The notes beneath the pieces were generated by a model that was not told the origin of the DNA, ran no database searches, and saw only the letters and a program-made list of their open reading frames with translations. From assembly GCF_002205845.1 (NCBI RefSeq), contig NZ_NISI01000003.1:1-64000 (forward strand): a DNA stretch of 64,000 bases. Reading direction: 5' to 3'. The translations under genes were made by a program, and so were the position numbers. This stretch comes from Roseateles puraquae (GTDB lineage Bacteria > Pseudomonadota > Gammaproteobacteria > Burkholderiales > Burkholderiaceae_C). Of this stretch, positions 17,702-60,145 are shown piece by piece (position 1 is the stretch's first letter; every line of letters starts with the position of its first letter).

Positions 17702-17791
17702 CGCTAACCCTCCCTCACCGCATCTCTTTGAAACTGGTCCGCGTTGCTTGACGCTCCGGACCTCAAGGCGTTCACACACGCAGGTTGTCCA

Positions 17792-23700: not shown

Positions 23701-24205
23701 CTCGGATCCGCGCGTACATGTCTTTCTCTGTACGGAACTCCCGATAGACATTGGCACCCAAGCCTTGCGCGTCGTTGAGCTGCGTAGTGACAGGCACGCC
23801 CACCGCGTTGTTGCCGCCGCTGGGCGCGGCGTTCCCGGATTCATCGGTCTGGATCAGTCGCTGCCCGTCCAGGCACAGTTTGTCACTTGCCACATAGGCA
23901 ACGCCGACAGTCTTGCCGTCTTGCGCGAGCGTCGCCCCGCACCGAGTGATCACGGACAAGCCCTGGACACTCCAACCATGCCCAACGGGACCGTTCACGC
24001 CGCCACCCGCGTAAAGCAGGCTTAGCTTTGGCGCCATGCCTCCAACGCCGGGCGGCACCGCTATGGCTTGGCTGTAGCTCGGCGTTCCGCCGTCTCCAAC
24101 TGCAACCTGCGCAATGGCGCTTGGCCAGAAAACAAAACCGCTCAACAAGGCGGCAGAACACACCAGTCCATGGCGCACGAATCGCACCAGGCATCGCTTG
24201 GGCAT
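17792..24205 (-). CDS. Giant secreted SpvB-like protein with FG-GAP repeats and nine Ig-like domains
   Basis: The ATG at 24205 follows a GGGAG and opens 2137 residues with a Sec signal peptide (VCSAALLSGFVFWPSAIAQ). An SpvB/TcaC N-terminal domain follows (GTPSYSQAIAVPPGVGGMAP), then seven FG-GAP-type motifs (DFDGDGKTDIL, DFNGDGITDLL, DVNGDGYLDIV, DVNGDGLADLL, DFNGDGRGDCL, DFNGDGRQDIL and a degenerate DFTGRGSMEML), then a TcB-middle-like part (SVTGPSGLKSKLYYVPLSN, RGRGMLGFREVL). From about residue 1210 to 2035 there are nine Ig-like domains of about 85-95 residues (SFSPTSV..G..S.FSW....A.S.SCSG). A short C-terminal domain has paired cysteines. In Tc toxins the SpvB/FG-GAP part is fused to RHS repeats; here the RHS part is the next gene, so the TcB/TcC shell seems to be split. 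Confidence 0.85.
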   Translation of the reverse strand: MPKRCLVRFVRHGLVCSAALLSGFVFWPSAIAQVAVGDGGTPSYSQAIAVPPGVGGMAPKLSLLYAGGGVNGPVGHGWSVQGLSVITRCGATLAQDGKTVGVAYVASDKLCLDGQRLIQTDESGNAAPSGGNNAVGVPVTTQLNDAQGLGANVYREFRTEKDMYARIRAYGNANGDSTGASGPAYFKVWTKAGQIYEYGDASGSPSATSALIAPPGKAPMAWAVARISDTLGNAVDFKYEQRDVRWGSGPTSGLPTFGHEWNIQEIQYSGNKVVFNYDLDAQGNDARTDKSEAYQQGRKNVSLRRLKSITTYVNSPATTLGANGGTPVRTTQLTYDYGPVTGRSRVVKIQDCAGGPTSTRCLPATNLAYTAGTSDGYQSSGGFAAGGLATQDLLGDGTYGVLTGDFDGDGKTDILYWSDTPSNNKLYLSNGDGSFWTPSSFNIKTVNLFKSDGCYYTIAADFNGDGITDLLRVMRATSTSNTNVSCGTPLTHYLYLGKHDGSFTSINLPSGIDFTQTTAKKTRQFNCLSPASTTYNPNCTEPGDIYLGTDQTPGANFHLIDVNGDGYLDIVTTQLPGYSRTMTIPSEATQCASIICTRVYLGSASGVFTEWTTTNLAHHSVYGAPSRGFYEYFRKPYVLDVNGDGLADLLVGTGLWTSQGNGDFIAPSADATQAGCATAIDFNGDGRGDCLYGLAVPSAQTLFVGDGTLNPSATASFNLTGPGQELLITNSDFPFSQTAGTIIADFNGDGRQDILRWKDDPAQNALYLSNGDGSFTTVANFSLAGVQLQNSNGTATVLLGDFTGRGSMEMLRLQTVGGTATNRLYVKGDPAPPDLLVSVTGPSGLKSKLYYVPLSNSTVARAVPDSLASDSSFGLRYLSDLDKPAFALSDASDLSLPMYVVATQVDDTGVGSSTVTTEMSYRGLKADRRGRGMLGFREVLRQRSGADGTPLTVDTTYVQTYPYTGVAATTSTYRSKLNATSASTLLSSTSNTYCDQGNTAAASASVNCPLTSKIARPYLYQSTEGGQDLAGVTLPTVVTQNVFNGTGDPATISVTTTGTTAGVAQTFTKSVSNTYYTDNTSCSNYQTCYWILGRLNQATVTNTVPNSLASIPSSAGTGTFATATSGSGPAVSSPLNLVLSNCSSTTPTLSPASASYQCQLGNSGTTNASNLTYATSSAALVVNGPASCAANTTNCGTVTMRTSAVAGAYTGYFTVSSAGATTTSTTVPLTVTAPNGLGVSAASFSPATVVAGTSSNFNWSTTNATSASVSCAGTGVTVTGTATGTAGNITVGTTVATTAASCTVIATGASGAMVSGSADLAITPAGSVGVTSASFSPTSVNAGSSSSFSWATANAASATVSCSGAGATATGSGTSGTITVSTTSAGTATCTVSAVGSGGATAIGSADLTVAASGVPTIGTSTFSPASVAVGGTSTFTWSVSNATSSSASCSGAVSGSGTGTATGGSLTLTAGATIGQGSCTVTAVGTGGNATGSFNIDVVRAPTVSGLIFSPAVSTATGSVPNFAWNTSNATSAKVVCTGVLSYNDSVALNGSLNLPVSGPGTGTCTVTASNGGVQASASATHTAYAESSVTSASFNPTSVTLGGSSTFSWATSNASSASVSCSGAGVTNTSSSLSGNITVTPSSAGTTTCTVTSSNAAGATSTGSASLSASVPVPTLTTSRNQQYVTAGVPQQGIFSWNAGGGATSVTASCTGTGNQSSTYTGTSLVNGMYVAGSTAGATLTCTATASNAQGGTVSSSQTFDIVAAPTVPSASWSPSTITIGGQSTLSWSSTNAVSMGISCSGVNGSWSPPVGVNAPSGSSTFTPSGTGVQACNLTATNAAGSQATGSASLTVAAAPTVNTAVFSPAVSTATGSVPNFSWTTSNATSASVVCTGVLSYNATVPVNGALNLPVSGPGTGTCTVTAYGAGGAQATRSATHTAYAAPSVTSASFSPTTVAVGGSSTFTWTTANASSATVSCSGAGATATGSSTSGSITVGTSSAGTATCTVTSSNAAGATASQSASLTVSAVVIQRFTASGPSGSTWTFTNPNASAQVVTSLGLSFGAIGNPMGAVITGGTCAVNGSVAAGGNCTVIVSAPTPDCTDNNYSVAPVLSMSAGSTTGSSLNRYAPANGICR
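18120..20577 (-). repeat. Array of nine Ig-like domain repeats, with an internal two-domain duplication
   Basis: Inside the SpvB-like gene, nine units of roughly 255-280 bases encode Ig-like domains. Units 4-5 (about 19190-19700) and 8-9 (about 18120-18640) form the same ordered pair: both start with FSPAVSTATGSVPNF, share LNLPVSGPGTGTCTVTA and HTAYA, and then pass into a SVTSASF domain. Their DNA is also alike, with shared stretches such as gctgtcgacacggctgg. This indicates a duplication of a two-domain block. Confidence 0.8.
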
Positions 24206-24491
24206 CTCAACTCCCTCGGCTTCGCGCATGGCCAAGGTGTTAACCCACCGCCTATGCGTCGACTTTGTTGCTATCGATGCTAACGAGCTTTTGTGTGAAC
24301 AGCATGTACTCCCCACATGGGAGATTTCACCTATCCCATCAGGGAAACCCTAACGCTCCAGCTTAAGGCGTCGGGGGAGCAAGGCACCGGTAGCGCCGAG
24401 GCAAAGTCAGCAGCATCATGTGATCGCAGACCCTGTTGCGGCTTTCACGGCCGCGCGTGAACATCTCCCGAGACCAAAAGGAGGAGAAGTG

Positions 24492-41879: not shown

Positions 41880-42182
41880 ATGATCGTCCTGAAGGCTCCC
41901 CTGGAGCAGGTGCTTGATGCACTTCAAGTGGTTGCTGGCAACTGTGGTCGGCGGCACCAACTCCCCGTACTCGCCGAAGTGATGATCAGCAGGCGTGGAT
42001 CGGGAGCCAACTACTTTGACTACATGCGCCGCGTGTTTCAGCAGACGCCGGCGCAGACTGTCGTCGTGCATCCCTGTGGCGAACCTGCCCGCCCGGTGAT
42101 AAAGCTCAAGCGGGCTCACGCGCAAGCGTTGTCGCGCGGTTTCTTCGGCGCGACGAAGGTCAATGCGCGCAATGCCCCTTGA
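41880..42182 (+). pseudogene. Chimeric fragment beginning with the N-terminus of DNA polymerase beta clamp (DnaN)
   Basis: The first 42 residues read MIVLKAPLEQVLDALQVVAG, then RRHQLPVLAEVMISRRGSG. This closely follows the start of Burkholderiales DnaN (MIVLKA...ALQ.V.GI.ERRHTLPILANVLIRK). After about residue 42 the similarity ends and the next 58 residues are unrelated. AAGG precedes the ATG. The normal clamp is about 370 residues, so this cannot work as a clamp. It could be a small remnant carried by an element that recombined with dnaN, or a captured start used as a fused leader. It lies just before the Xre/RES pair. Confidence 0.65.
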
Positions 42183-42202
42183 ATCGGTCGATCGAAGTTG
42201 CC

Positions 42203-42673
42203 ATGAAGTCCACCTCCAGCACTTACCCATCCGCACAAAGCTCAGCAAGCGCGCCCCGCGCCACACAGCGACCGTCGCCCTATGTCTCTGCCACTCAAAC
42301 TCGCGCACTACTGGCCGGCAGCCTCGCTGCCCGCACTGAGCGCTTGCAGGCTGGCGACATGGTGACCACGGAGCAGGCTGCCGAGCTCGCCAGCACCACC
42401 CGCGTGACCATCAACGCATGGATCGCCAAGGGACGAGCCATCGGCTTGACCCAAACCCGTCGCGGCTTTCGACTGCCGAAATGGCAGTTTGAGCCCGCGT
42501 TGTGGGATGTGATTCCCGAGCTTGCCCAGGCCTTGGGGACCAGCGAAGGCTGGGCTCTGTTGTCGTTTCTAGAGACGCCTCTTGGCAGTCTCAACGGACG
42601 GACACCTCGCCAGGCGATCGAACAAGGCGATACGGCGCGCGTCCTCGCACTGGCATTGGCGGAGGGCACTTGA
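42203..42673 (+). CDS. Antitoxin of the Xre/MbcA/ParS (RES partner) family
   Basis: From the ATG at 42203 the product has 156 residues. After a variable serine-rich start comes a helix-turn-helix (MVTTEQAAELASTTRVTINAWIAKGRAIGL; key part TRVTINAWIAKGR), then the DUF2384-type antitoxin domain (ETPLGSLNGRTPRQAIEQGDT). The antitoxin normally binds the RES toxin and represses the operon. A TTG at 42179 would add eight residues. The toxin gene follows after nine bases. Confidence 0.88.
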   Translation: MKSTSSTYPSAQSSASAPRATQRPSPYVSATQTRALLAGSLAARTERLQAGDMVTTEQAAELASTTRVTINAWIAKGRAIGLTQTRRGFRLPKWQFEPALWDVIPELAQALGTSEGWALLSFLETPLGSLNGRTPRQAIEQGDTARVLALALAEGT

Positions 42674-42682
42674 TCGACCCGC

Positions 42683-43264
42683 ATGAAGCTTGCCGACCTC
42701 GAATTTGTACCCAGTTTTGAGCTACCCGCTCCCACCGTCCTCTATCGCGTTCAACGTATCCGCGCCCGCCGTGGCACCGTGCGGATCGGGCGTCTCCTAC
42801 TGCCGCCCTCGGGCCTGCTGAGCGGGCGCTTTGATGTCGCCGGTGTGTCGGTAGGCTACTTTGCCGAAGCGCCCGAGACCGCGGTCTATGAATCTTTGTG
42901 CCGACGTGAAGTCATCAGCGTATCCATGCAGGCAGCGGCACAGAGAGCACTGCTGTGCTTGCAGACTGCGGCGCCGTTGAAGCTGCTGGATCTGCGCATG
43001 CACGCCAGCAGCTGGCCGGTGCTCCAGTCACTTCGTCTGCACCATACGCAAGAGCTTGCTATGCAGGCACTCGGCCAGGGATTCGCCGGTATCGCTTACT
43101 GCTCGGCGCAGCAGCACGGCATGGACTGCTACGCCATCTTCGGTGATGGATTGCGGTCGCTCCGAGCCCTCTGGGCCGAGAGTCTCACCGAGCCCGGCAC
43201 CGGGAATCTCCACGGCATGCTTGCTGCAGCACTGAAAGGCTCCCAGGTGCCGCTCACACCTTGA
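42683..43264 (+). CDS. RES-domain toxin (NAD-degrading family)
   Basis: The 193-residue product carries the RES domain: LYRVQRIRARRG with the conserved Arg at the start, SGRFDVAGVSVGYFAEAPETAVYESLCR with the Tyr/Phe and Glu, and YCSAQQHGMDCYAIF with the conserved Ser. RES toxins hydrolyse NAD and stop growth when the antitoxin is degraded. The genes are arranged antitoxin then toxin on one transcript. The length is normal and all the expected residues are present, so it is likely functional. Confidence 0.88.
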   Translation: MKLADLEFVPSFELPAPTVLYRVQRIRARRGTVRIGRLLLPPSGLLSGRFDVAGVSVGYFAEAPETAVYESLCRREVISVSMQAAAQRALLCLQTAAPLKLLDLRMHASSWPVLQSLRLHHTQELAMQALGQGFAGIAYCSAQQHGMDCYAIFGDGLRSLRALWAESLTEPGTGNLHGMLAAALKGSQVPLTP

Positions 43265-43482
43265 GATAGCCTGGCTACGGCTGTGCTGCCGATCGCGCGC
43301 ATTGAGGCAGATGGCTTCCGGACACTGCCAAAGTCGGTGTGGCGCTGCCGATGGTCGAGCCACGTTTGCCCCCCATTGACTGGAAATGCAGTCATCAGCC
43401 ACCACCCAGTGGCGCGGGCAATGTCCTAGCATCATCATCCGCATGAGTCGGACGCCAGAGATCCGGCTGCAGGGAGGAAACC

Positions 43483-46400
43483 ATGGCAGTCAAAGCCATC
43501 TTCGTCGGCATCAACAAACAGCTCGACCCGAACATCGACGAGCTGACCGGCGCTGTGCGCGATGCCAAGGCGCTGAACGCGCTGTTCATGGACTCGGTAC
43601 CGGACTTGAGCGCCCAGTTGCTCATCGATGAGCACGCCACCAAGGAGGCTGTCTCCAAGGCCATTTTCGGGACCCTGACCAGCGCGACAGCCGATGATGT
43701 GCTCGTCATCAGCTTTGCTGGTCACGGATCGCCGGATGGTGGATTGGCGCTCTACGACACTACGACGGCCGACCTGCCGGGCTCAACGCTGTCCATGGCG
43801 GATCTCGCGGACGCATTCAAGGCAACGCAAGCGAGAGTGGTCCTCTGCATCCTGGATTGCTGCTTCAGCGGCCACGCGCCTGGCCGGGTGCTCCAGGTTG
43901 CTGCGCAGCCGCGCAGTGTTTTCGCTGTTGAGCGGATCGCTGGCGAAGGCCGCATCCTGCTGTCTGCATGCACCGCGCGTGAAGTCGCCTGGGAGCAGCC
44001 GGGCACCGGCCACGGGCTGCTGACCTTCGCGGTGATCCAGGCCATGACTGGCGTTAACGACGATCACGTCAGCTTCCCGGCCGTAGCCGACCAGATCATC
44101 CAGATCGCACGCGTCGAGGCGCAGCGCCTCGGCGTTTCCCAGACACCGGTGTTCCTCGGCGCGGTCCAAGGTGGCTTGGTCTTCCCGCGTCTCAAGCGAG
44201 GAGACAACTACCAGGCCGCCTTTCCCTGGACAGCGGTTGAGCGGATCACGGGGCAGTTCGACGAATTGCTGGCTCACGGCTTCCCTAATGCGGTTGTCGA
44301 CCAGTGGAAGGCTCGCTTCCAAGGCGGTCTCAATCCGTTGCAGCTGCGCGCCGTCAACGAGTTCGGTGTCCTGGCCGGCAAATCGCTGCTGACGGTCGCA
44401 CCAACGAGTTCGGGCAAGACCATGGTGGGCGAGCTGGCCGCCGTGCAGTCCGTCGTGGCTGGGAAGAAGGCGGCATTCCTGCTGCCGTATCGGGCGATCG
44501 TGAACGAGAAGCTCGAAGAGTTCAGCGAGCGATACGGCGCCGCGGGCATGCGGGTGATCCGCTGCACTGGCGACGCCACGGACAGCGTGGGGGATGTGCT
44601 CGGCGGCCGCTATGACCTTGGCTTTTTCACCTACGAGACCTTTCTGAACTTGGCCCTCGGTGCACCTCATGTACTCAGCCGTCTGGGCCTCGTCGTGGTC
44701 GACGAGGGTCAGTTCATTACCGACCCGCGACGCGGCATCATCGTTGAGCTGATCCTGGCGCTTCTGCTACGAGCACGAACACGAGGCATCGAGCCGCAGC
44801 TGATCGTGCTTTCGGCCGTGCTTGGCAGGCTCAATGGCTTTGAGAACTGGCTCGACATGCCGGTGCTGCTGTCCCAGGATCGGCCGGTGCCGCTGATCGA
44901 GGGCGTCATGGATCGTTCAGGCACTTTCCAATTTCGGGATGTCGACGGGTCGACCAAGGTAGAGGCGCTGCTGGCGCGACATGAGATCCGCCAGCGCAAG
45001 GCAAAGCCCGAGACACAGGACATGCTGGTGCCACTGGTCCAGAAGCTGGTTGCCAACGGAGAAAAGGTCATCATCTTCCGCAACCAGCGAGGTTCCGCAC
45101 AAGGCTGCGCGCGCTACTTGGCTGCGGAGATCGGCAAAGGCCCGGCGACGTCGGCCCTGGAGGCGCTGCCGGACCAGGACCTCACGGCCGCGTCGCAGGA
45201 CCTGCGCACCTGCCTGGAAGGCGGCACCGCCTTTCACAGCACCAACCTACTGCGCGCCGAGCGCGAGGCAGTGGAGCGCGGGTTTCGCGACTTGAACGGG
45301 GGTATCCATGTGCTGGCGTCGACCACCACGCTGGCCGCAGGCATCAACACGCCGGCGTCCACGGTGATCCTGGCTGAACAGGAGTTCCTAGGCGAGGACG
45401 GACGCCCCTTCACCATCGCAGAGTACAAGAACATGGCCGGTCGCGCGGGCCGCCTTGGCTTCAATGAGACTGGCAAGGCCATCCTGCTGGCGGACACCTC
45501 CATGGAGCGCGCGAGGCTCTTTCAGCGCTACGTGATGGGCGCCCCCGAGGACGTGAGGTCATCGTTTTCTGACGCCGCGATGGCGACGTGGGTGCTGCGG
45601 CTGCTTAGCCAAGTGCGAGCGGTCCGGGAAGACGAGATTCCCGGGCTGCTGGTCAACACCTTCGGCGGCTATGCCGCCTCGCGGGCTCACCCTGGCTGGG
45701 TCCCGGCGATCTCGCAACGAATTGCGGAGTTCGTGGCGCGGCTGCTTCAAGCTGGCCTGGCCGAGAAGGAAGGCGACGTTGTCCACCTGACCATGCTCGG
45801 CCAGGCGGTCGGGGCCTCTTCGCTGTCGTTCGAGTCGGGACTGCGCATGGTCGAGCTGATGCGCGGCCTCGACCTCGCAGCGACGCCACCGATCAATGTG
45901 CTCGGGCTTGTTCAGGTGCTGGCGGAAATGTCGGACATCTACACCCCGATCTACACGCGCAACCGCAGCGAGGCGGCACGCGTCTCGGACGTCATTCAGA
46001 AATACGGCGATGGCGTCTCCCGCACCCTCCAGCGCTATGGCGCCGACGAACACGAGCTGTGGCGGCGCAGCAAGCGCGCCAGCATCCTGTTCGATTGGGT
46101 CGAGGGCGTGCCCGTGGACGTGCTGGAGCGGACCTATACGGCCAACCCCTATCAGGGCGCGATCCGGTACGGCGACATCATGAGCATCGCCGAGGGCACG
46201 CGGTTCCATCTGCGCTCTGCACACCGCATTCTGGCCGCGCTGTTTCCCGACCAGCCTGATTTCCTCACGGCCCTAGACGTGCTGTTAACCCGGCTGGAAT
46301 TCGGGCTTCCGGAGGCCGCCCTGCCGCTGGCGGGCATCCGACCGCGCTTGTCGCGTGGACAGTGCCTGGCCTTGATTCAGATCGGCGTCGTAACGCTGGA

Positions 46401-46500
46401 CCAACTCAGCGCGCTCGACGATGCCCGACTGCAGGCTTGCGTAGGCGCGGCGATGTTTCGGCTGATGAGGCCCAAGACCGCATCAGGGACACCGTCATGA
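43483..46500 (+). CDS. Caspase-like protease fused to a Ski2/Hel308-type helicase
   Basis: The ATG at 43483 is preceded by GGGAGGAAACC. The 1005-residue protein starts with a caspase/metacaspase (C14) domain: His81 in SFAGHGSPDGG and Cys127 in LDCCFSGHA, residues 1-235. Next, at about 280-760, comes a superfamily-2 helicase: Walker A APTSSGKT (residues 306-313), motif II VVDEGQF (406-411), motif III-like LSAVLGR, motif V TTTLAAGINTPA, motif VI NMAGRAGR (650-657), as in Hel308/Ski2 proteins. A winged-helix and ratchet-like region fills the C-terminus. Motif II has Q instead of H. The architecture suggests that nucleic-acid remodelling activates a suicide protease. It is translationally coupled to the Abi-C gene. 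HamB of Hachiman is also a Ski2-like helicase, but its partner is different. Confidence 0.9.
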   Translation: MAVKAIFVGINKQLDPNIDELTGAVRDAKALNALFMDSVPDLSAQLLIDEHATKEAVSKAIFGTLTSATADDVLVISFAGHGSPDGGLALYDTTTADLPGSTLSMADLADAFKATQARVVLCILDCCFSGHAPGRVLQVAAQPRSVFAVERIAGEGRILLSACTAREVAWEQPGTGHGLLTFAVIQAMTGVNDDHVSFPAVADQIIQIARVEAQRLGVSQTPVFLGAVQGGLVFPRLKRGDNYQAAFPWTAVERITGQFDELLAHGFPNAVVDQWKARFQGGLNPLQLRAVNEFGVLAGKSLLTVAPTSSGKTMVGELAAVQSVVAGKKAAFLLPYRAIVNEKLEEFSERYGAAGMRVIRCTGDATDSVGDVLGGRYDLGFFTYETFLNLALGAPHVLSRLGLVVVDEGQFITDPRRGIIVELILALLLRARTRGIEPQLIVLSAVLGRLNGFENWLDMPVLLSQDRPVPLIEGVMDRSGTFQFRDVDGSTKVEALLARHEIRQRKAKPETQDMLVPLVQKLVANGEKVIIFRNQRGSAQGCARYLAAEIGKGPATSALEALPDQDLTAASQDLRTCLEGGTAFHSTNLLRAEREAVERGFRDLNGGIHVLASTTTLAAGINTPASTVILAEQEFLGEDGRPFTIAEYKNMAGRAGRLGFNETGKAILLADTSMERARLFQRYVMGAPEDVRSSFSDAAMATWVLRLLSQVRAVREDEIPGLLVNTFGGYAASRAHPGWVPAISQRIAEFVARLLQAGLAEKEGDVVHLTMLGQAVGASSLSFESGLRMVELMRGLDLAATPPINVLGLVQVLAEMSDIYTPIYTRNRSEAARVSDVIQKYGDGVSRTLQRYGADEHELWRRSKRASILFDWVEGVPVDVLERTYTANPYQGAIRYGDIMSIAEGTRFHLRSAHRILAALFPDQPDFLTALDVLLTRLEFGLPEAALPLAGIRPRLSRGQCLALIQIGVVTLDQLSALDDARLQACVGAAMFRLMRPKTASGTPS

Positions 46501-47906
46501 ACTCCGCGGATCTGGCTGGTGGGCAGCCAACACCCCTGCAGGGCGAGCTGCTCGGACAACTCCTTGGAGAGATGCTGGAACGCCGCGGCGGCGTGCCTTA
46601 CTACAAGTTCCGCTCGATGCACGTGCCGCATTGGGCAGAACTCGACGGCATGGAGGCCAAGGGCTGGCTCAAGCGAGACAACGACCACTACTACGTCCAG
46701 TCCACTGCCGTCCCGCTGATCGACACGCCGGCGGCGCGGGAACGGCTTGCGAACATTGAGCGGATCTATGCAGCGCTGCGGGCGCAGTACCTGCAGACGC
46801 AGCTGCGGCCCTACAAGGTCAATGAATTGGCCGAGGCCATTGAGCTGACACCCGAGGTCGTGCTGGAGGTGTTGCGGCACATGATGGATACCGTGGCCTG
46901 GCACATGGGCTCGTCGCTGAACGTGGCGCTGGAGGAGGCCTCTGTAAGCCCGGGCGAAAAAATTCTTCAGTTCAGCACCTTCACGGAGCTGGCCGCGGAC
47001 GTCCGCAGTTGGCAGCGCGGCCCCACTTATTTCCCGGGCACGCTGGCGGATGACCGGCCGCAGGAAGACACACGTGCGGAATCCGTACCGACACATTCGC
47101 CTACTGCCTTGACCAGCGCCTGGCCGCCGGCGCGGACCTGCCTGCAAGGCTTTAAGTTCGACGAGATCAAGGACATCGCCGGGCTTGCCGGCTTTGACGT
47201 GACCGCGGCAGCTGATCTCGTTCAGGGCAGCGGCTCCAATGTCACCAAAGGCCAGCTCCTCGCGGCCATCGACCGCCAGTTGCGGGACATGGATGCCCAG
47301 CACACGGCCCGGTTTCTCGCCATTCTCATAGAGGAGATACTGAGCCGCGAGCCCGAAGCGGAGGAGAAGCTTTCCGGCCACCTGAGCCGGCTGGGTTGGT
47401 CGTTTATCGATGGCAAGTTGCTTCCCGTGGCGCTGTTCGATTCCGGCGCGTTGGAAGATATGCCCGCCGATGCCCATCCGGACCTGCTGAAGGCTGCCCA
47501 GCGTCTTCGTGACGGCGATCTTGGGGGCGCCATCTCCGCCGCTGCCGGCGCTGTAGACGCCGCCGTAGCAAAGGTCTATCGCGAAGCCAATCTAGGCGAT
47601 CCCACAAGGGCGACGTTCCAGGAAGGCTGCAAACGCGCCATGGCCGCGCGTGGCATCCTGGTGGATTTGGAAGGCCGCCTAGCCGAACTGCAATGGCAGC
47701 CCGCTGACGCAGGGCTCTTTGCGCGCAACCTGGAGGGGGCGCTCGTCAGGGGTGCCTACGTCATGCAGACGCTCCGCTCCCACATGGGCGACGTCCACGG
47801 CAGCAAGCCCATCTTGCGCGCTCTGGTCTTCGACAGCCTCCGGTGGGCCGAACTGCTGGTCGGGGCGCTGCTGGTGGTCAAGACCGATCCGGCGCCCAAG
47901 GGCTAG
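46497..47906 (+). CDS. Abi-C (HEPN-like) domain partner of the caspase-helicase
   Basis: The ATG at 46497 overlaps the helicase stop (ATGA); the product has 469 residues. The N-terminal part (residues 1-190) looks like winged-helix/linker sequence (RFSTFTELAADVRSW), the middle has a helical region (KDIAGLAGFDVTAAADLV), and the C-terminal 90 residues match the abortive infection C-terminal domain: VDAAVAKVYREA, then GALVRGAYVMQTL, RSHMGDVHG and RALVFDSLRWAELLVGALLVV. The R-x6-H pair (R427, H434) is the HEPN RNase-type motif. It may be an RNase effector or the sensor that the caspase-helicase acts on. Function is inferred. Confidence 0.8.
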   Translation: MNSADLAGGQPTPLQGELLGQLLGEMLERRGGVPYYKFRSMHVPHWAELDGMEAKGWLKRDNDHYYVQSTAVPLIDTPAARERLANIERIYAALRAQYLQTQLRPYKVNELAEAIELTPEVVLEVLRHMMDTVAWHMGSSLNVALEEASVSPGEKILQFSTFTELAADVRSWQRGPTYFPGTLADDRPQEDTRAESVPTHSPTALTSAWPPARTCLQGFKFDEIKDIAGLAGFDVTAAADLVQGSGSNVTKGQLLAAIDRQLRDMDAQHTARFLAILIEEILSREPEAEEKLSGHLSRLGWSFIDGKLLPVALFDSGALEDMPADAHPDLLKAAQRLRDGDLGGAISAAAGAVDAAVAKVYREANLGDPTRATFQEGCKRAMAARGILVDLEGRLAELQWQPADAGLFARNLEGALVRGAYVMQTLRSHMGDVHGSKPILRALVFDSLRWAELLVGALLVVKTDPAPKG

Positions 47907-47995: not shown

Positions 47996-48157
47996 GTGAT
48001 AAATCCAGAGGGGCAGCGCTTGGCACAACGTCCGTCCATTCCGCCTTTAGGCAACCGCCCGCAGACGTTCTCGCCTAAGCCCAACGGAGGCGTGACGTCG
48101 CCGGCGATCATTCCGCGCTCGCCCCCGCCACCGGCCCCCGCACCAGCGCCAAAGTGA
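47996..48157 (+). CDS. Proline-rich peptide of 53 residues
   Basis: The GTG at 47996 opens a 53-codon frame (VINPEGQRLAQRPSIPPLGN, then a tail IIPRSPPPPAPAPAPK). Its stop overlaps the GTG start of the next gene (AGTGA), which is typical coupling. The tail resembles that of the next protein (IVPSAPIRPAPPPPSAPAP). No ribosome binding site is visible, so a leaderless or read-through origin is possible. No known domain. The coupling and the tail similarity are the reasons to call it. Confidence 0.5.
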   Translation: MINPEGQRLAQRPSIPPLGNRPQTFSPKPNGGVTSPAIIPRSPPPPAPAPAPK

Positions 48158-48852
48158 GCGTGGGTCATCTGGATTCGGCGCGGCAGCGTCTGAAGTTCAC
48201 TCGCGAGCGGATCAAGCCGTCCACTATGCCAGCGACGGCACCTGTCCCGGCTGTCGATACGGCAGAGTGTGGCAAGGCCCCCTTTGTTCCGAGCGACCAG
48301 AGCGAGAAACTGTTGGCCGACTTCACGGCAGAGGTGCGCAAACGCCAGGTTTCCGCCTCCGAGAACTTCGACAAGTCGGTCCTCACCCTGTCCACGAGCG
48401 GCCTGGCCGTCTCGCTGGCATTCTTGAAGGATTTCATCCCTATCGGGCAGGCGTTGAGCGCGTGGATGCTCTATGCCTCGTGGGGGCTCCTGACGGCCGC
48501 CACGGTGATCACCATGTTGTCCTTTCTCGCCAGCATGCGGGCGCAGGAGTTCCAACAGGCTATTGCCGAGGGCCACTACCGGCGCGGAGAGGCTCACGAC
48601 AAACCCAATCCTTGGGACCAGTTTGTGATCTGGATGAACCGTGCCTCCGGCGCCAGCTTCATCGCCGGCGTCTCGTTGACCACCTTGTTTGTCGCGATCA
48701 ACCTGCAAAGGGCCCACGAAGTGAAGAATCTTCCGCAACCTTCCAACACTGTTCCCGACCGCCGCGGCCTACCGTCGCCCGGCATCGTGCCCAGCGCCCC
48801 AATTCGGCCCGCACCGCCGCCGCCATCGGCGCCAGCTCCTCAGACCAAGTAG
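48154..48852 (+). CDS. Small membrane protein with proline-rich C-terminus
   Basis: The 232-residue product has an N-terminal soluble part with a coiled segment (FTAEVRKRQVSASENFDKS), then three hydrophobic helices (about residues 76-98, 104-125 and 165-182: LTLSTSGLAVSLAFLKDFI, WGLLTAATVITMLSFLA, FIAGVSLTTLFVAI). The C-terminal 45 residues are proline-rich and similar to the peptide encoded upstream. This layout, in which helices span ENFDKSVLTLS..L, recurs in uncharacterised membrane proteins; some SLATT-type effectors have similar helices. Its role is unknown, though its place next to the caspase-helicase operon makes an effector role possible. Confidence 0.6.
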   Translation: MSVGHLDSARQRLKFTRERIKPSTMPATAPVPAVDTAECGKAPFVPSDQSEKLLADFTAEVRKRQVSASENFDKSVLTLSTSGLAVSLAFLKDFIPIGQALSAWMLYASWGLLTAATVITMLSFLASMRAQEFQQAIAEGHYRRGEAHDKPNPWDQFVIWMNRASGASFIAGVSLTTLFVAINLQRAHEVKNLPQPSNTVPDRRGLPSPGIVPSAPIRPAPPPPSAPAPQTK

Positions 48853-51606: not shown

Positions 51607-52335
51607 CTAACGTTTGGACTGCTTGCGCATGGATTCGCCCTTCAGCTCAATCTGATGGGCCGCATGAAGAACTCGGTCCAGCACTGCATCCGCGATCGTC
51701 GGATCCCCGATGTAGTCGTGCCACTTCTCGGTGGGCAATTGAGAGGTCAGCACCAATGAGCTGTTGCCGTGGCAGTCGTCGACGAGATCGAACAGGTCTT
51801 GCCGCTGGCGTGTGCCTAGGGCTGTCAGGCCCCAGTCGTCGATGATCAGCATCCGCGCCTTTGCCAACTGCGCCCTGAGCTTTGGCAGGCTTCCATCGGC
51901 GCGACAGACTTCAAACTCCTCAAGCAGCTTGCTGAAGCGTCGGTACAGCACCGGCATGCCTTTGCGAATTGCCTGATGCCCAAGAGCACAGGTCAACCAA
52001 GTCTTGCCCACACCCGTAGGGCCTGTCACGACGAGATGCTGCTTACCGATCCAGTCACAGTTGAGCAGAGTGCTGAACTTCCTCTTGTCCAGCCCACGCT
52101 CTGCTCGGAAGTCGACATCCTCTGGAGTGGCCGACACCTTGAGCCGCGCCGACTTGAGCAGCCGGGCCATGCGCCCGCTCTCGCGCCGAGAGATTTCGGC
52201 ATCGACCAGCATGGAAAACCTGTCCTCGAAGGACAGATCCTGAAGACTGCTGGACGCGCGCTGACGTTCGAACGCTTCTGCCATGCCATGAAGACGGAGC
52301 GTAGCCAACGATTCCATTGTGTTTTTGATCAGCAT
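51607..52335 (-). CDS. istB: IS21-family ATPase IstB
   Basis: The 242-residue product has a DnaC-like AAA+ fold: Walker A VVTGPTGVGKTWLTCALGHQA (key part GPTGVGKTW), Walker B RMLIIDDWGL and sensor TSQLPTEKWHDYIGDPTIADAVLDRVLH. IstB helps IstA choose and hold the target. It overlaps the istA stop. Size and motifs are normal, so it is likely active. Confidence 0.93.
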   Translation of the reverse strand: MLIKNTMESLATLRLHGMAEAFERQRASSSLQDLSFEDRFSMLVDAEISRRESGRMARLLKSARLKVSATPEDVDFRAERGLDKRKFSTLLNCDWIGKQHLVVTGPTGVGKTWLTCALGHQAIRKGMPVLYRRFSKLLEEFEVCRADGSLPKLRAQLAKARMLIIDDWGLTALGTRQRQDLFDLVDDCHGNSSLVLTSQLPTEKWHDYIGDPTIADAVLDRVLHAAHQIELKGESMRKQSKR

Positions 52336-53861
52336 GACGTGCCACCCTTGTTTGCGTAGTACCCGGCGCCGCGAACGTTGTGATGCAGCGGCAAGCCAAC
52401 TTGCCGAGGCTCGTCAGGATGTGCGTCGCGATACCGGCCGGTGCTCAGGAGAGAGCGAACCGTCTTGAGCGTTGGCGACTTGATCTGCAGCGCCCGCTCA
52501 CATGCCTGTTCGAGTCGGTCATCGCCATACTGGCGGCTCAGCTTCTTCAGTGACTCGCATGCTGGGAGACCGAGCGCTGGCACGGGCCGGTCGAACTGAT
52601 GCTCGACCACCGCCAGGGTGCTCGCCCCGACAGAGCGAGCCCACTCCAGAAGCCGATCGGGCGTGCGCTCTGCATACGCTCGATGCTGCGGCGGCATGTG
52701 GGCTGGATCCGTCCGGGGCTTCCCCTCGGCTTGGCGCTCGTGAGTGGCAACTCTTGAGCCGCGATGAAAGATCTCGATAGTCTTCAGCGCCGCTCGCGCC
52801 TCAACGGTCTCGCCGACCAGATGGAAGGGGACGGAGTACCAAGCACGCTCGACGTTCACGTGGTAGTCGGGACCCACGGTAAGTGATGCGGTCCAGTTGG
52901 CCCACTCGAACCGATCTGATGGCAGTGGGAGAAGTTTCGGGTGCTCTTCCTGTTCGAGACGGTCTTTGCGGCAGCCGGGCATTTTCTTGAAAGGCCGCAC
53001 ATTGAGCTCGTCGCAAAGCCTGCGCACTTCAGCGTTGAGATCTCCAAGTGAAAAAAACTGCATCGCGCGTAGCCTGGCCAATATCCACCGTTGCGCGATT
53101 AGCACAGACACCTCGACTTTCGCCTTGTCTTGAGGGCGGCGGCTCCGGGTTGGCAAAATCACCGTCCCGTAATGATTGGCGAGCTCGGAGTAGATCCGAT
53201 TGAGCTTGAAATGTGAGCCAGGTTTTATGACTGCCGCTTTCAGGTTGTCGGGGACGATAATTCTCGGAACACCGCCAAAGTAGTTCAGCATCTGAACGTT
53301 GGCCTCAACCCAATCCGGCGAGCTCTGGCTTTCGACTGCGAGCGCAAATGTGAAGTTTGAGAACCCCAGCACACCGACAAATAACTCGACGAAAACTTTC
53401 TCACCTGTTTCCTGATTCACGTAGAAGGGGCGCTTGCCGCTGAAATCCACAAACGCCTTCTCGCCAGGCAGGTGAACTTGGCGCATACTCAGTTTCAAGT
53501 GACCCTTGAACTGTCGGTAGTGGTGCGTAAATTGCGAGTACGACAGTGCATCCTCTGGTGAAGGAAGTCGATACTCTTCCCAGAGAAGCTGAAGCGTGAC
53601 CATCGGAAGAGCAAGTTGCTCATGAATGTGAGCAAAATCAGGCATGCGTTTGGTAGTGAGACTGCCGACTCTCTTGTTGATGAGGTCATCAAGCTCATGC
53701 GCGGTCAAATTACTGATATGTGGCCACTGCAGGCCGCTATTGCCTGATAAAACCCTGTAGCGCCTAACCGTGTTTTTGGCCACAGCTACGGCTTGACCAA
53801 TCTCACGGTCGGAAAGTGCCGTAGTCAGAACCAGCCGCAGGATGTCGCGGATTTTGTTCAT
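52329..53861 (-). CDS. istA: IS21-family transposase IstA
   Basis: The 510-residue transposase has an N-terminal helix-turn-helix (LRLVLTTALSDREIGQAVAVAKNTVRRY; key part LSDREIGQAVAVAKNTVRR), then the DDE core (EKAFVDFSGKRPFYVNQETG, PDNLKAAVIKPGSHFKLN, TRSRRPQDKAKVEVSVLIAQRWIL) and the C-terminal beta domain. It catalyses cut and join of the IS21-type element. The three catalytic residues appear to be present. Located between the island's unknown gene unit and the small gene at 54127. Confidence 0.93.
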   Translation of the reverse strand: MNKIRDILRLVLTTALSDREIGQAVAVAKNTVRRYRVLSGNSGLQWPHISNLTAHELDDLINKRVGSLTTKRMPDFAHIHEQLALPMVTLQLLWEEYRLPSPEDALSYSQFTHHYRQFKGHLKLSMRQVHLPGEKAFVDFSGKRPFYVNQETGEKVFVELFVGVLGFSNFTFALAVESQSSPDWVEANVQMLNYFGGVPRIIVPDNLKAAVIKPGSHFKLNRIYSELANHYGTVILPTRSRRPQDKAKVEVSVLIAQRWILARLRAMQFFSLGDLNAEVRRLCDELNVRPFKKMPGCRKDRLEQEEHPKLLPLPSDRFEWANWTASLTVGPDYHVNVERAWYSVPFHLVGETVEARAALKTIEIFHRGSRVATHERQAEGKPRTDPAHMPPQHRAYAERTPDRLLEWARSVGASTLAVVEHQFDRPVPALGLPACESLKKLSRQYGDDRLEQACERALQIKSPTLKTVRSLLSTGRYRDAHPDEPRQVGLPLHHNVRGAGYYANKGGTSC

Positions 53862-56820: not shown

Positions 56821-59349
56821 TCAGATGCCGACAAAACTGAAGGATGCCCAGTTCTCCAGCTTTTCGGAGGACGAGGCTGCCCTGCACACTTCGTCAAACG
56901 CAACGACGGGATCGACCTGATGCTGCGCGATTCGAGTGTAGAGCTCCCCCATAAATCGACCGGCGAACGCGTCGCTGACTGGCCACCGACTGCCGACGAC
57001 CGCTCTTGCACCGCTGCGGAGCAGACTGCCAGTCAACCCGAACAGGTCGTTGGTGGATTGGAAAGATCCCAAGTTCGATGAGCAAGCGGACAAAGTTACG
57101 AGCGACGCGCCTTGAAGGCCTACCTCGCGCAATTCCTTCGCCGTGACGCGCTTCGCATCGCTCTCATGATCTGCGCTCAGCAAAAGCGCAGAACGCTCAG
57201 GAAAGAGGTGATCGAAGGTCCCGTGACAGCAAAAGTGAATGTACTCATAGCCTTTCGCCAATTCCGCCAGAACGTCGACCTTGGTGAGTCTTCGATCGGG
57301 CACCACAACAGCGTTCTCGCGGAAAGCATCGCGCAGCGTCTGCACTTCGTCGGCGACCCGCGGTAGATCGTCGCCTTCGTACCCGACGATCAGCAATCGG
57401 CCGTTCCGATTTCTTTGGCGCAGGCAAATGTCGTGGGCCACGGCCAAACTGGGAAGCTGACGCACGCGGTGACGGCTCCGCGCCGGTTGCTGCGCGGTCG
57501 CAGAGCCTGCCGCCACGTCGAACGGCAATCCGTTGAGGAGGCCGGGGGTGACAAGCAGGACATCGTTGACGCCCTCCTCTTGCAGCAGTTTGCGCATCGG
57601 CTCGAACACGATGGGGTCCAACTCGCGAAAGAATTCCGTGAGAGCCCGGTTGCGGTTGATGCCAGGCTTGGACATGTCCTGCCGGTAGTCGGTCAGCTTG
57701 TCGAGAACCTTGCGCGCGCCAGGACTGTCAAACCGCCAAGTGCGATGGGCGATCTTCCGGCCGGACCAAAACTTCTTGGGTTTTAGCGGGTCCAGAAACA
57801 AGTTCGCCACGCCGGCGTGGACATCTAGTGAGACAAGAGCCGCGCCCGGCACCGTCGTGCCGAGCGTCGCGAGCATGGGCTCGATGTCGGGAAGCCGCAG
57901 CTGCTTGGTGTGGGGAGTGTCCCTGCTCACGCCCAGCATCTGCTCGAACTGTGCCTTCAACACCCTTTCGACTTGGCGTCGCCGTTCCTCTTCGGACATG
58001 GTGTGCAAGCGAATGGTCGCACCTCGTAGCGCTTCCGTGGCCGCCAGCGCTTTCAAAGGTTCATCCCGACGCGCATACGCGGCAGCGAGCGCAGAAAAGA
58101 TCGGAAGGTATTCGTGGACGCGTCCGTAGAGGTTATGTTCCTCGAGCGCACGATCTATGTCGGACTGCGCCAATGCCGCCGCAAGTTCCCATTCGCGGAT
58201 CGCCTCGTCGAGCCGGCCGTGCCGCAGCAGGTAGGAGGCAAGATAGTGGTGCGGCTCGTGCTGTTGCGGCCAAATCCGACCGACCTCCGGGGTGCGTAGC
58301 ATGTACTCCAGATCCTTCGCCGCCTGGTCAGACGCTGCGCCCTCCGGCCACCCTTGCTTGGCCAACGCATTGACTCGCGACACGGCGATGTTGATGCTGA
58401 GCGTTCCATTGCCGCCGGCGAACTGCAGCGCTTGTGCATAGTGGCGATTGGCTTCGTCGAAGTCGCAGAGCTTCGGGTCACCTACTGCATGGAGGTCACC
58501 CAGAAGGTGATGGGTGCGGGCCAGCTCACGGTCGCGCGTTGAAAACTCCTCCCCGGCGTACCCGGCCAGGGCACGGTGCGCCGCAGCCAGCCCAGCGGCA
58601 CGCACGTCAAAACCGGCCAGTGTCTTGACCAGTTGCTCAGACTTTAGCTTGGCCAACGCGCTGTAGGCTGCCATGGCGTAGTTGTGTTCGATCGCAGCCC
58701 GCGAGAATGCATGGTCGCTCAATGCTGCCGCTTCCTCGAACCGGCTCAGGGACTTCAACGCTGCCGGCACCACGAAGGTTCTCCGGAAATAGTCACGGTA
58801 GAGGTTGCCCTCAATGTTCAGCAGGATGCAGCGCGCGGCCGGGTCTGCCGCATAGCTCACTTTGCGCAGCCTGCCGACGAACCGCAGCATCAACAGCATG
58901 GCCGTCTGAAAGTCGGGATGCGCATTTTGATGTTGCAGCTCTTCGAGCAGCCGGTTCGCATCCGCGGACACGTCGTTGCCGTACTCGTATCCGTCGAGCA
59001 CGTCGAAGAAATGGGTGGGGAATGGCGGATCAATGCCTTTCTCGTCCAAGGTCGTTCGCCCCGATCGGCATTGCGGGCATGCGATCAGACCGGGGTCTGA
59101 CGTCCGAACTTGCGCGACGTGGCCGTTGTCCAGGCACTTGAGGCTCACCCGTCGAGAGTGGACCACCGGTTGACAAGCTTCGGGTGCGCCGCATGCCGCG
59201 CACCGGGTAGGGGCGTCGAACTCCGGCGGACAGCGCATCTCTTCACCGCATTTGACGCAACGCGTGTAGATCTGGCCGTCGATGCTCAACAGCTTCGCAC
59301 GGTCCGAGTCGATGTAACTGGGGAGATCGGCAGGAAACTCGAAGAGCAT
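56821..59349 (-). CDS. CHAT-domain protease with zinc ribbons and TPR-like repeats
   Basis: The 842-residue protein opens with two zinc ribbons (CVKCGEEMRCPPEFDAPTRCAACG, with pairs CVKC and CAAC at about 34-57, and CLDNGHV...CPQCRSG at about 72-97). A TPR-like helical middle (about residues 110-470) follows, then the CHAT caspase-like domain (about 520-842) with catalytic His in YIHFCCHGTFDHL (about 707) and Cys in VTLSACSSNLG (about 754), and the typical NDLFGLTGSLLRSGARAVVGSRWPVSD. CHAT proteases are effectors in bacterial immune modules. It is followed by the EACC1-like gene. The N-terminal ribbons may bind nucleic acid or partner protein. Substrate unknown. Confidence 0.9.
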   Translation of the reverse strand: MLFEFPADLPSYIDSDRAKLLSIDGQIYTRCVKCGEEMRCPPEFDAPTRCAACGAPEACQPVVHSRRVSLKCLDNGHVAQVRTSDPGLIACPQCRSGRTTLDEKGIDPPFPTHFFDVLDGYEYGNDVSADANRLLEELQHQNAHPDFQTAMLLMLRFVGRLRKVSYAADPAARCILLNIEGNLYRDYFRRTFVVPAALKSLSRFEEAAALSDHAFSRAAIEHNYAMAAYSALAKLKSEQLVKTLAGFDVRAAGLAAAHRALAGYAGEEFSTRDRELARTHHLLGDLHAVGDPKLCDFDEANRHYAQALQFAGGNGTLSINIAVSRVNALAKQGWPEGAASDQAAKDLEYMLRTPEVGRIWPQQHEPHHYLASYLLRHGRLDEAIREWELAAALAQSDIDRALEEHNLYGRVHEYLPIFSALAAAYARRDEPLKALAATEALRGATIRLHTMSEEERRRQVERVLKAQFEQMLGVSRDTPHTKQLRLPDIEPMLATLGTTVPGAALVSLDVHAGVANLFLDPLKPKKFWSGRKIAHRTWRFDSPGARKVLDKLTDYRQDMSKPGINRNRALTEFFRELDPIVFEPMRKLLQEEGVNDVLLVTPGLLNGLPFDVAAGSATAQQPARSRHRVRQLPSLAVAHDICLRQRNRNGRLLIVGYEGDDLPRVADEVQTLRDAFRENAVVVPDRRLTKVDVLAELAKGYEYIHFCCHGTFDHLFPERSALLLSADHESDAKRVTAKELREVGLQGASLVTLSACSSNLGSFQSTNDLFGLTGSLLRSGARAVVGSRWPVSDAFAGRFMGELYTRIAQHQVDPVVAFDEVCRAASSSEKLENWASFSFVGI

Positions 59350-59599
59350 GGCCGTCCTTCTCTGCTCGGTGTGACGGCCGCTAGCGTAGCGTCGGGCTTA
59401 CCTCATGCGTAACGCAGCGGGGCGCAAATCTACTTAGAAGTTATGAGAAGTCCTGTCGATCGCTGATCTGACCGCTTGCCTCATGGGACGTCTTCGCTTC
59501 TCCTTGACGCGCGGGCCTGTTCGGTCCGCCTCTACGTCCTTCGCATGCCGCGCATTGGGCGCTTGCGTCGGCGGGTGTATTCGCTTCGAGTAAAGATGC

Positions 59600-60145
59600 A
59601 AGTTCGAGCCGGCTGCTGTGTACCGCATTCGCCGACCCGCTGGGCCAGCGTCGAGCGGGCGATCAGGTGGCCGGCGCGGGCGAAGACCGCCCAGCAGGTG
59701 GGCCAGCAGGCCGACCGTGGGGATGCCCTTGTCGATAACGTGGGCCGGCCCCGGTGCCTGCACGATGCGCTCGCAGCACTTGCAGACCCACTTGCCACGG
59801 ACATGGCGCTCGACGGTGAACACGCCCGGCTGGTAGTCGAACTTATCGGACACGTCCTCGCCGATGCGCTGTATGGCCTTGCCGCAACCGCAGGTAGTGT
59901 CGGCCGGTTCGTGAGGCACGTAGCGACGCGGCAGGTGGGGGGGGCAGTTGGGCGCGCTTGGGCACCTTCTTCTCGTCCTCGCCCCTCTTGTCGGCCTTCT
60001 TGCGATGGCGCTGCAGCTCGCCGTCGAGCTCATAGATGTCGGTGTCCAGCGTCTCTTCCAGCAGGCTGCGTTGCTCGGGCAAGAGGGTGCTGGCGCAGCG
60101 CTCGCTGGTGCGGCGAAACTTCATCCGCGCGTCGACGTTGTCCAA
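59600..60145 (-). pseudogene. IS66-family transposase fragment (frameshifted)
   Basis: From 60145 the translation gives an N-terminal coiled-coil part (MDNVDARMKFRRTSERCAST, then LLEETLDTDIYELDGELQRH), which after a frameshift at the G-run near 59937 continues as the zinc-binding domain RYVPHEPADTTCGCGKAIQRIG, FTVERHVRGKWVCKCCERIV and PTVGLLAHLL. Another shift then gives AGHLIARSTLAQRVGECG. These are IS66 TnpC domains in order. The catalytic core is absent, so it is a remnant. Confidence 0.85.

What the first reader, a model, noticed from the sequence alone, without database searches (positions are those of the whole stretch)
43483..47906. Caspase-helicase fusion plus Abi-C gene: candidate undescribed defence system
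A single gene joins an intact caspase domain (His81, Cys127) to a Ski2/Hel308-type helicase with clear motifs, and an overlapping gene (ATGA) encodes a C-terminal Abi-C/HEPN-like domain with R427/H434. Known Ski2-like defence helicases such as HamB of Hachiman act on nucleic acids; here the helicase carries a suicide-protease domain, so DNA or RNA sensing could trigger self-proteolysis or host proteolysis, with the Abi-C protein as target, RNase or regulator. The surrounding island supports a defence role. The mechanism is inferred.
Basis: partly seen in the sequence, partly recalled or inferred. Interest (0 to 1): 0.92.

Follow-up and report, generated by a model that had tools for sequence, protein, structure and literature searches.

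The report
Single-gene caspase–helicase in bacterial defence islands
One bacterial gene joins a caspase-like protein-cutting enzyme to a DNA-unwinding motor; relatives occur in unrelated bacteria, often among known antiviral genes, so it probably senses abnormal DNA and triggers a cell-suicide style defence, though I know of no test of this.

Summary
Window 43483-46500 encodes one 1005-aa protein: a metacaspase-type caspase domain (His81/Cys127), then a nearly complete Hel308/Pol-theta-type helicase. It is a real family. In 28 aligned fusions (five phyla, two known only from MAGs) His81, Cys127, Lys312 and DE407-408 are invariant; copies cross phyla. In 7 of 11 chosen pairs DNA similarity stops near the gene edges. 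On plasmids, 6 of 8 neighbourhoods hold recognisable defence genes against 0 of 8 control stretches (categories fixed after looking). Best reading: a stand-alone, mobile, DNA-sensing caspase, probably abortive-infection defence; trigger and substrate unknown. Caspase-helicase proteins were listed in surveys from 2010 (PMC2853523, PMC3501461); my searches showed no study of them as defence genes. Arg144, invariant in a disordered loop after Cys127, may be a self-processing site.

The parts
43483..46500 (+). caspase-Hel308-type helicase fusion gene, 1005 aa (stop included)
   Evidence: full-length relatives
43473..43477 (+). GGAGG ribosome-binding site, 5 bases before the ATG
   Evidence: sequence
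43483..44187 (+). metacaspase-type caspase domain, about residues 1-235
   Evidence: Pfam C14 residues 4-192, 1.8e-9; model of residues 1-256 pLDDT 82.6, pTM 0.86; Foldseek GSU0716, MALT1, metacaspases
43723..43725 (+). predicted catalytic His81, invariant in 28 of 28
43861..43863 (+). predicted catalytic Cys127, invariant in 28 of 28
43912..43914 (+). Arg144: invariant in 28 of 28, only invariant basic residue of the caspase domain (25-row alignment), in a low-confidence loop; candidate self-processing site (inferred)
44281..46452 (+). Hel308/HelQ/Pol-theta-type superfamily-2 helicase, residues 267-990
44416..44418 (+). Walker A Lys312, invariant in 28 of 28
44701..44706 (+). motif II Asp407-Glu408, invariant in 28 of 28
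46497..47906 (+). 469-aa protein in an ATGA overlap; local neighbour, not a conserved partner
47091..47903 (+). its C-terminal half, remotely Abi_C-like (R427...H434-G435)

Best explanation
It is a stand-alone, horizontally mobile defence gene: a single polypeptide in which a Hel308/Pol-theta-type DNA motor gates a metacaspase-type protease. Shown: domain architecture, invariant predicted active sites of both enzymes, wide patchy spread, frequent placement among known defence genes, no family-wide partner found. Inferred: the motor loads on exposed 3'-tailed or forked single-stranded DNA made by replicating phages or plasmids; DNA engagement plus ATP hydrolysis rearranges or clusters the protein; the caspase is released from inhibition, perhaps by cleaving itself after Arg144; and the active protease, predicted to cut after Arg/Lys, destroys essential host (or phage) proteins, stopping growth before phage release. 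The overlapping Abi-C-like gene is at most a local add-on.
For: Domain identity by HMM and fold: top Foldseek hits are Hel308, Hjm and Pol theta, 2va8 E 1.4e-35, HamB rank 28; profile against PDB 9.6e-90 for 2zj2, 1.6e-27 for HamB; caspase model closest to GSU0716, MALT1 and metacaspases, sequence profile 7.1e-6 to metacaspase-4. Predicted active sites of both enzymes invariant in 28 of 28. Spread: 17 loci from one genome scan, one of them the window region itself; 12 of 19 matching plasmid records cover at least 80% of the query; 1 of 3 viral-collection relatives is full length. A Nitrospirota plasmid copy (MAG) nests with Alphaproteobacteria at 100/99. At E<=1e-100, 0 of 398 other sampled same-order genomes carry it: patchy. 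In 7 of 11 chosen pairs DNA similarity around the fusion ends within about 165 bases of the gene. Neighbours: Lamassu LmuA-C-B ending 8 bases upstream in L010, AbiE, type I restriction, Septu PtuA, Hachiman HamB at 1387 bits, XamI restriction, ThiF/multiubiquitin, ABC-3C, Piwi, TIR and caspase genes; controls 0 of 8.
Against: No functional data and no known substrate. Defence categories were fixed after looking, from incomplete plasmid gene tables; the chromosomal neighbour scan has no control, and some PADLOC models may catch housekeeping relatives. In 2 of the first 8 plasmid regions (L023, L029) I saw no clear defence gene; counting two later Hymenobacter regions strictly it is 6 of 10. In 4 of 11 pairs similarity runs into a neighbour: an exonuclease-BRCT gene in three Hymenobacter, a PDC-S54-like gene in Bosea and Rhodopseudomonas; a relative of the latter also adjoins L007, and a relative of the window's 48154-48852 protein adjoins L005, so clade-specific partners are possible. 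Similarity stopping at gene edges could also reflect faster divergence of non-coding DNA. The full model is moderate (pLDDT 78, pTM 0.67) and below pLDDT 50 at parts of the Walker A loop and later motifs. DNA rather than RNA as ligand is inferred from the fold alone.
Confidence: 0.58

Rival explanations
1. Two-gene system: the caspase-helicase activates or cleaves the translationally coupled Abi-C-like protein, which is the toxic RNase or regulator.
For: ATGA overlap suggests co-translation in this strain; C-terminal half remotely Abi_C-like.
Against: Not found in the other fusion loci searched; parts of it occur on 8 plasmid records, none a fusion record, and the 6 opened show no annotated fusion nearby; 0 of 199 other same-order genomes carry it at E<=1e-5.
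Confidence: 0.08
2. Competition between mobile elements: it guards a plasmid or island against incoming plasmids or transposons, or stabilises its carrier, rather than resisting phages.
For: 12 plasmid records hold it; 3 of the 10 opened are typed conjugative (L023, L027, L028) and 2 mobilizable (L025, L029); recombinases, integrases or transposases lie near it in several; a DNA sensor would also see conjugating single-stranded DNA.
Against: Also lies on genome contigs beside Lamassu, AbiE and type I restriction genes; no antitoxin-like partner recurs in more than 3 of 21 loci.
Confidence: 0.2
3. A DNA repair or damage-response helicase whose caspase domain tunes repair proteins or cell fate after replication stress, not immunity.
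For: Archaeal Hel308 and human Pol theta are repair factors (established knowledge); the helicase is closest to them.
Against: Not in 398 other sampled same-order genomes, jumps phyla, sits on plasmids and among defence genes, and is interrupted by an IS3-like element (identified by eye) in an otherwise 99.98-100% identical contig: a dispensable accessory gene.
Confidence: 0.1

Closest known systems
Hachiman (HamA-HamB), including protease-HamA + HamM versions (PMC12799240; passages read)
   Same: SF2 Ski2-like motor as DNA/ATP-controlled sensor; in HamMAB a protease output is gated by a DNA helicase
   Different: Here a Hel308-type not HamB-type helicase, a caspase not a trypsin-like protease, both in one chain; no HamA or MBL-fold pro-nuclease match among the window neighbours scanned
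Canu (caspase-nuclease, CanABC; PMC12799240; passages read)
   Same: Caspase-family protease in a defence locus; MALT1-like fold
   Different: Canu has separate CanB and a pro-nuclease CanC and Ig-like or TPR domains; no such Pfam match here
EACC1-associated caspases (NF047832; PMC7159879; passages read)
   Same: Best caspase model in NCBIfam, 85.7 bits
   Different: Below its cut-off of 140; the upstream gene is a RES-domain protein, not EACC1; the C-terminal region is a helicase
Metacaspase-helicase entries of older surveys (PMC2853523: Acaryochloris marina gene 641257535; PMC3501461: 12 of 671 sequences with helicase activity; PMC8283722: 3 with DEAD; passages read)
   Same: Caspase plus helicase domains in one protein
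   Different: In the passages seen, listed as domain combinations; no Hel308 assignment or defence role; I could not check that they are the same family
Archaeal Hel308/Hjm and human Pol theta helicase
   Same: Nearly the whole helicase length (positions 8-694 of 739 of PRK02362)
   Different: No caspase in the solved chains; housekeeping repair genes (established knowledge)

Membership tests
Metacaspase/orthocaspase (peptidase C14) | caspase fold with His-Cys dyad | tested here: met
   dyad invariant 28 of 28
Metacaspase/orthocaspase (peptidase C14) | acidic S1 pocket for Arg/Lys (two Asp; recalled) | tested here: inconclusive
   D27 aligns with the Asp of the metacaspase 'GCxND' stretch; D125 lies two before Cys127; both 28 of 28; specificity not assayed
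Hel308 helicases | Hel308-type helicase over nearly full length | tested here: met
   PRK02362 residues 267-990, positions 8-694 of 739; Foldseek and PDB profile
Hel308 helicases | equivalog cut-off of the NCBI model | tested here: not met
   306 bits against 887: homologous motor, not called an orthologue
Hachiman | HamB-type helicase | tested here: not met
   97 bits to HamB, 306 to a Hel308-type model; a HamB on plasmid L022 scores 1387
Hachiman | adjacent HamA nuclease | tested here: not met
   no PADLOC match at E<=0.01 for the proteins at 42179-42673, 42683-43264, 46497-47906, 48154-48852
Canu | caspase-linked MBL-fold pro-nuclease | tested here: not met
   no such Pfam match in the same four neighbours; no family beside the fusion in more than 3 of 21 loci
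EACC1-caspase | EACC1 membrane gene 5' of the caspase gene | tested here: not met
   upstream gene is RES domain, 3.3e-15
Abi_C (PF14355), for the 46497-47906 protein | match above the family cut-off | tested here: not met
   no match at E<=1, none in own genome; remote profile similarity only
Anti-phage defence system | protects against phage | not testable with these tools
   only genomic association

The most novel reading that the evidence does not exclude
A complete DNA-sensing cell-death device in one protein: a Hel308/Pol-theta motor that directly switches on its own metacaspase by self-cleavage at Arg144 and kills by proteolysis of host proteins, with no separate effector; a minimal bacterial counterpart of a nucleic-acid inflammasome.
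Probability: 0.35. Interest if true: 0.86.

Novelty: new variant of a known kind. Interest (0 to 1): 0.68.

Why it matters
The bacterial defence caspases I know of work with separate sensors, adaptors or pro-nucleases. This family would put a DNA sensor and a caspase in one polypeptide that is often inherited alone, occurs across phyla and has two clean point-mutation tests. It would link repair-type helicases (Hel308, Pol theta) to immunity, as HamB did, and would let one ask directly what a bacterial caspase cuts to stop an infection.

Tried and rejected
Abi-C partnership: rejected as a family feature. The own genome's other caspase and helicase matches on contig 38 were followed as a possible split version; the two ORFs lie about 1.4 kb apart in L030 and by eye carry other domains (deacetylase/TPR-like; Suv3-like), so I judged them unrelated (not HMM-checked). 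The 232-aa protein at 48154-48852 was tested as a partner: a 44% relative lies upstream of the Caballeronia copy, and plasmids gave one weak match; unresolved, not general. Hachiman membership: rejected. A first comparison of the Abi-C-like half held only a Hypoth_Ymh protein and gave nothing, because my motif filter had missed the Abi_C rows; three of four were then added (L057 dropped, ORF not identified). A single-sequence caspase search of PDB gave four weak antibody-type matches; the profile worked. Phage records gave two matches, helicase part only. Whether the Acaryochloris gene of PMC2853523 is the same family is open; no Acaryochloris plasmid matched at E<=1e-30. One library search (bacterial caspase, defense island, helicase) gave 0 papers.

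Limits: the genome scan needs exact short peptides, so its 17 loci are a lower bound; the 399- and 398-genome samples overlap; few candidates per genome were scored. The 11 pairs were my choice. Two of 12 plasmid records (H3, H5; near H2 and H4 in identity) and the broken L009 copy were left out of the tree. Neighbour ORFs were picked mechanically, and PADLOC tallies show only 25 of 61 and 25 of 242 families.

Papers: PMC12799240, PMC3501461, PMC7159879, PMC8195603, PMC8283722, PMC2853523 and PMC7475262 were seen as passages around search terms; PMC12458937 had no passage for the terms; all others only as search listings. The ten library searches (listings capped) showed no defence study of a caspase-helicase fusion; most subscription papers are not held.
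Full report
What is there. The gene at 43483-46500 encodes 1005 residues. Residues 4-192 match Pfam Peptidase_C14 (1.8e-9), 285-447 DEAD (2.5e-18) and 584-659 Helicase_C (1.2e-7). The NCBIfam Hel308-type model PRK02362 covers residues 267-990 at 306 bits (cut-off 887), and the best caspase model there is the EACC1-associated type at 85.7 bits (cut-off 140). The best HamB model reaches 97 bits. The next gene overlaps by ATGA at 46497 and encodes 469 residues with no PADLOC or NCBIfam match and no meaningful Pfam match.

Is the fusion real? One scan of the species-genome collection gave 39 pattern matches, of which 17 encode a relative. One (L009, a Burkholderiales MAG) is the window region itself at 100% and 99.98% identity, with the fusion gene interrupted by an element that looks IS3-like by eye. 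One (L008) begins at a contig edge. The other 15 are uninterrupted fusions in Proteobacteria, Hymenobacter, Niastella, a Scytonema and a Nomurabacteria MAG. Among the plasmids, 19 records match at E<=1e-20 and 12 hold at least 80% of the query. In viral contigs 3 of 49 pattern matches are relatives: one full length at 37%, two over the caspase part only. The full-length one (L032) has a serine recombinase nearby and no phage genes that I recognised by eye, so I do not call it viral. In the phage records two match, helicase part only.

Conservation. The first alignment has 25 fusions, the 24 others 36-74% identical to the window protein; adding L032, L050 and L051 gives 28: the window, 16 genome loci, 10 plasmid loci and one viral-collection contig. 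Of 36 positions I checked, in 28 of 28 the residues D27, H81, G82, D92, D125, C127, F128, S129, G130, R144, G311, K312, T313, D407, E408, A445, V446, T614, T616, A618, G620, N622, G653, R654, A655, G656, R657, R862 and K864 are unchanged; S444, T615, L617, A619, I621, R865 and W872 vary. Both enzymes thus look maintained by selection. R144 is the only invariant basic residue of the caspase domain in the 25-row alignment. It lies in a loop with pLDDT under 50 (129-149 in the domain model; 138-150 in the full model) whose other positions vary (mean identity 48% for 137-153 without it). By analogy with the loop that caspases and metacaspases cut in themselves (recalled), I propose it as a self-processing site; a structural role is not excluded. 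Three helicase-free caspases aligned beside it do not clearly keep it (by eye).

Fold. The full-length model (17 sequences) has pLDDT 78.1 and pTM 0.67. Its best PDB matches are Hel308, Hjm and Pol theta helicase; HamB ranks 28th. A profile of the 25 fusions gives 9.6e-90 for Hjm 2zj2 and 1.6e-27 for HamB. The caspase-domain model (pLDDT 82.6, pTM 0.86) is closest to GSU0716, MALT1 and yeast, Candida, trypanosome and plant metacaspases; the sequence profile finds metacaspases first (7.1e-6). Metacaspases and MALT1 cut after Arg or Lys (established knowledge), and D27 and D125 sit where metacaspases carry their S1 aspartates (D27 by alignment; D125 by spacing, recalled), so Arg/Lys specificity is predicted.

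Spread. Of 399 same-order genomes only the window's own has the fusion at E<=1e-100. Of 398 phylum-wide genomes only the own has it full length; three others match the caspase part alone at E<=1e-25. The tree of 28, rooted at its midpoint, splits 4 from 24; the Nitrospirota plasmid copy groups with four alphaproteobacterial copies at 100/99, within an 11-row group otherwise of Proteobacteria. The Neorhizobium (L010) and Hyphomicrobiales (L016) copies are 95.8% identical, and both have AbiE-like DNA upstream at 90% identity; between it and the fusion L010 has a complete Lamassu set, L016 a single ATPase-like gene whose best PADLOC match is Ppl, 9.9e-26. In 7 of 11 pairs that I chose, DNA similarity around the fusion stops within about 165 bases of the gene; in the four Hymenobacter pairs among these it starts one or two bases before the start codon. 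In the other 4 it runs into a neighbour. Apart from the fusion, no protein family recurs in more than 3 of the 21 loci compared.

Neighbours. Of 155 neighbour proteins of at least 180 aa from 15 genome loci, PADLOC models at E<=1e-10 include Lamassu, AbiE, PD-T4-6, Hhe, MkoA, PDC-S37 and PDC-S54 in the first 75, and Septu PtuA, type I and II restriction-modification, AbiE and PDC-M68B in the other 80 (lists capped; no control). Lamassu LmuA-LmuC-LmuB ends 8 bases before the fusion in L010. On plasmids, 6 of the first 8 regions inspected (L022, L024-L028) hold XamI restriction with a Hachiman HamB (1387 bits), multiubiquitin/ThiF, ABC-3C, Piwi, or TIR and caspase genes, with Upx at 8.5e-77 in L027; L023 and L029 do not. 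Two more Hymenobacter regions show another caspase gene (L051) and a phospholipase D-like plus Fic/VbhA pair (L050), not counted. Eight control stretches of 21 kb in the same eight plasmids show none of these categories; a BrnT/BrnA pair, Fic genes and a DUF6088 gene occur there. The categories were fixed after seeing the focal regions, and the gene tables are incomplete, so this is descriptive. PDC-S54-like proteins adjoin the fusion in L007, L027 and L028.

The Abi-C-like gene. It was found in L001 (window) and L009 only among L001-L021, in 1 of 200 same-order genomes (own), and in no viral contig. Eight plasmid records match parts of it, none of them a fusion record. Of six opened, four carry its C-terminal part as a separate gene of about 260 codons on conjugative plasmids (L035-L038), one a 295-codon gene matching less of it (L040), and one Polaromonas protein shares its N-terminal part joined to a Hypoth_Ymh domain (L039). 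It is thus probably a modular protein of mobile elements that happens to follow the fusion here. Its C-terminal half is probably a divergent Abi_C relative.

Mechanism. Shown: architecture, active-site conservation, mobility, association. Inferred: a Hel308-type motor recognises forked or gapped DNA with a free 3' single strand (established for Hel308 and Pol theta) and converts this plus ATP hydrolysis into caspase activation. The HamMAB work shows that such coupling exists: DNA and ATP hydrolysis trigger a protease held by a helicase complex (PMC12799240, passages). With no conserved effector gene found, the substrate should be ubiquitous: the protein itself, host proteins or phage proteins. 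Rivals are competition between mobile elements, damage response, and the two-gene model.

Known or new. Survey tables of 2010 and 2012 already list caspase-helicase proteins (PMC2853523; PMC3501461), and a 2021 survey three cyanobacterial ones (PMC8283722), so the architecture is not new. I found no paper that treats it as a defence gene, assigns it to Hel308, or notes its solitary mobility. I file it as a new variant of a known kind: a nucleic-acid-gated protease in defence islands.

Noticed in passing
L009:8001-12335: A MAG contig otherwise 99.98-100% identical to the window has an element, IS3-like by eye, inside the fusion gene, which suggests that the gene is dispensable.
   Followed up: partly
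window 42179-43264: RES-domain protein preceded by a small protein with weak HTH/Xre-MbcA-ParS antitoxin-like matches: a probable RES-Xre toxin-antitoxin pair just upstream.
   Followed up: no
L010:28-11021 and L016:3272-11021: Two 95.8% identical fusions both have AbiE-like genes upstream but different defence genes between (Lamassu versus an ATPase-like gene): apparent cassette exchange inside a defence island.
   Followed up: partly
L020:11149-12063, L025:12148-13062, L050:6829-7743: A DnaQ-type exonuclease with a BRCT domain (91-92% identical) follows the fusion in three Hymenobacter loci: possible clade-specific accessory.
   Followed up: partly
L007:3316-4581, L027:8388-8993, L028:8390-8995: PDC-S54-like (PADLOC phage-defence candidate) proteins directly beside the fusion in two distant clades.
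   Followed up: partly
window 48154-48852: 232-aa protein with two hydrophobic stretches by eye; a 44% relative lies directly upstream of the Caballeronia fusion (L005:7130-7786).
   Followed up: partly
window 56821-59349: 842-aa CHAT-domain (caspase-like) protein on the other strand, weak BovA similarity in PADLOC (4.4e-6).
   Followed up: no
window 13580-24316: Adjacent RHS-repeat protein and a 2174-aa protein with FG-GAP, SpvB and TcdB-mid matches, resembling Tc-type B and C components; described only.
   Followed up: no
window 51607-53861 and 59434-60033: IS21-type transposase genes, and a protein with an IS66 zinc-finger match.
   Followed up: no
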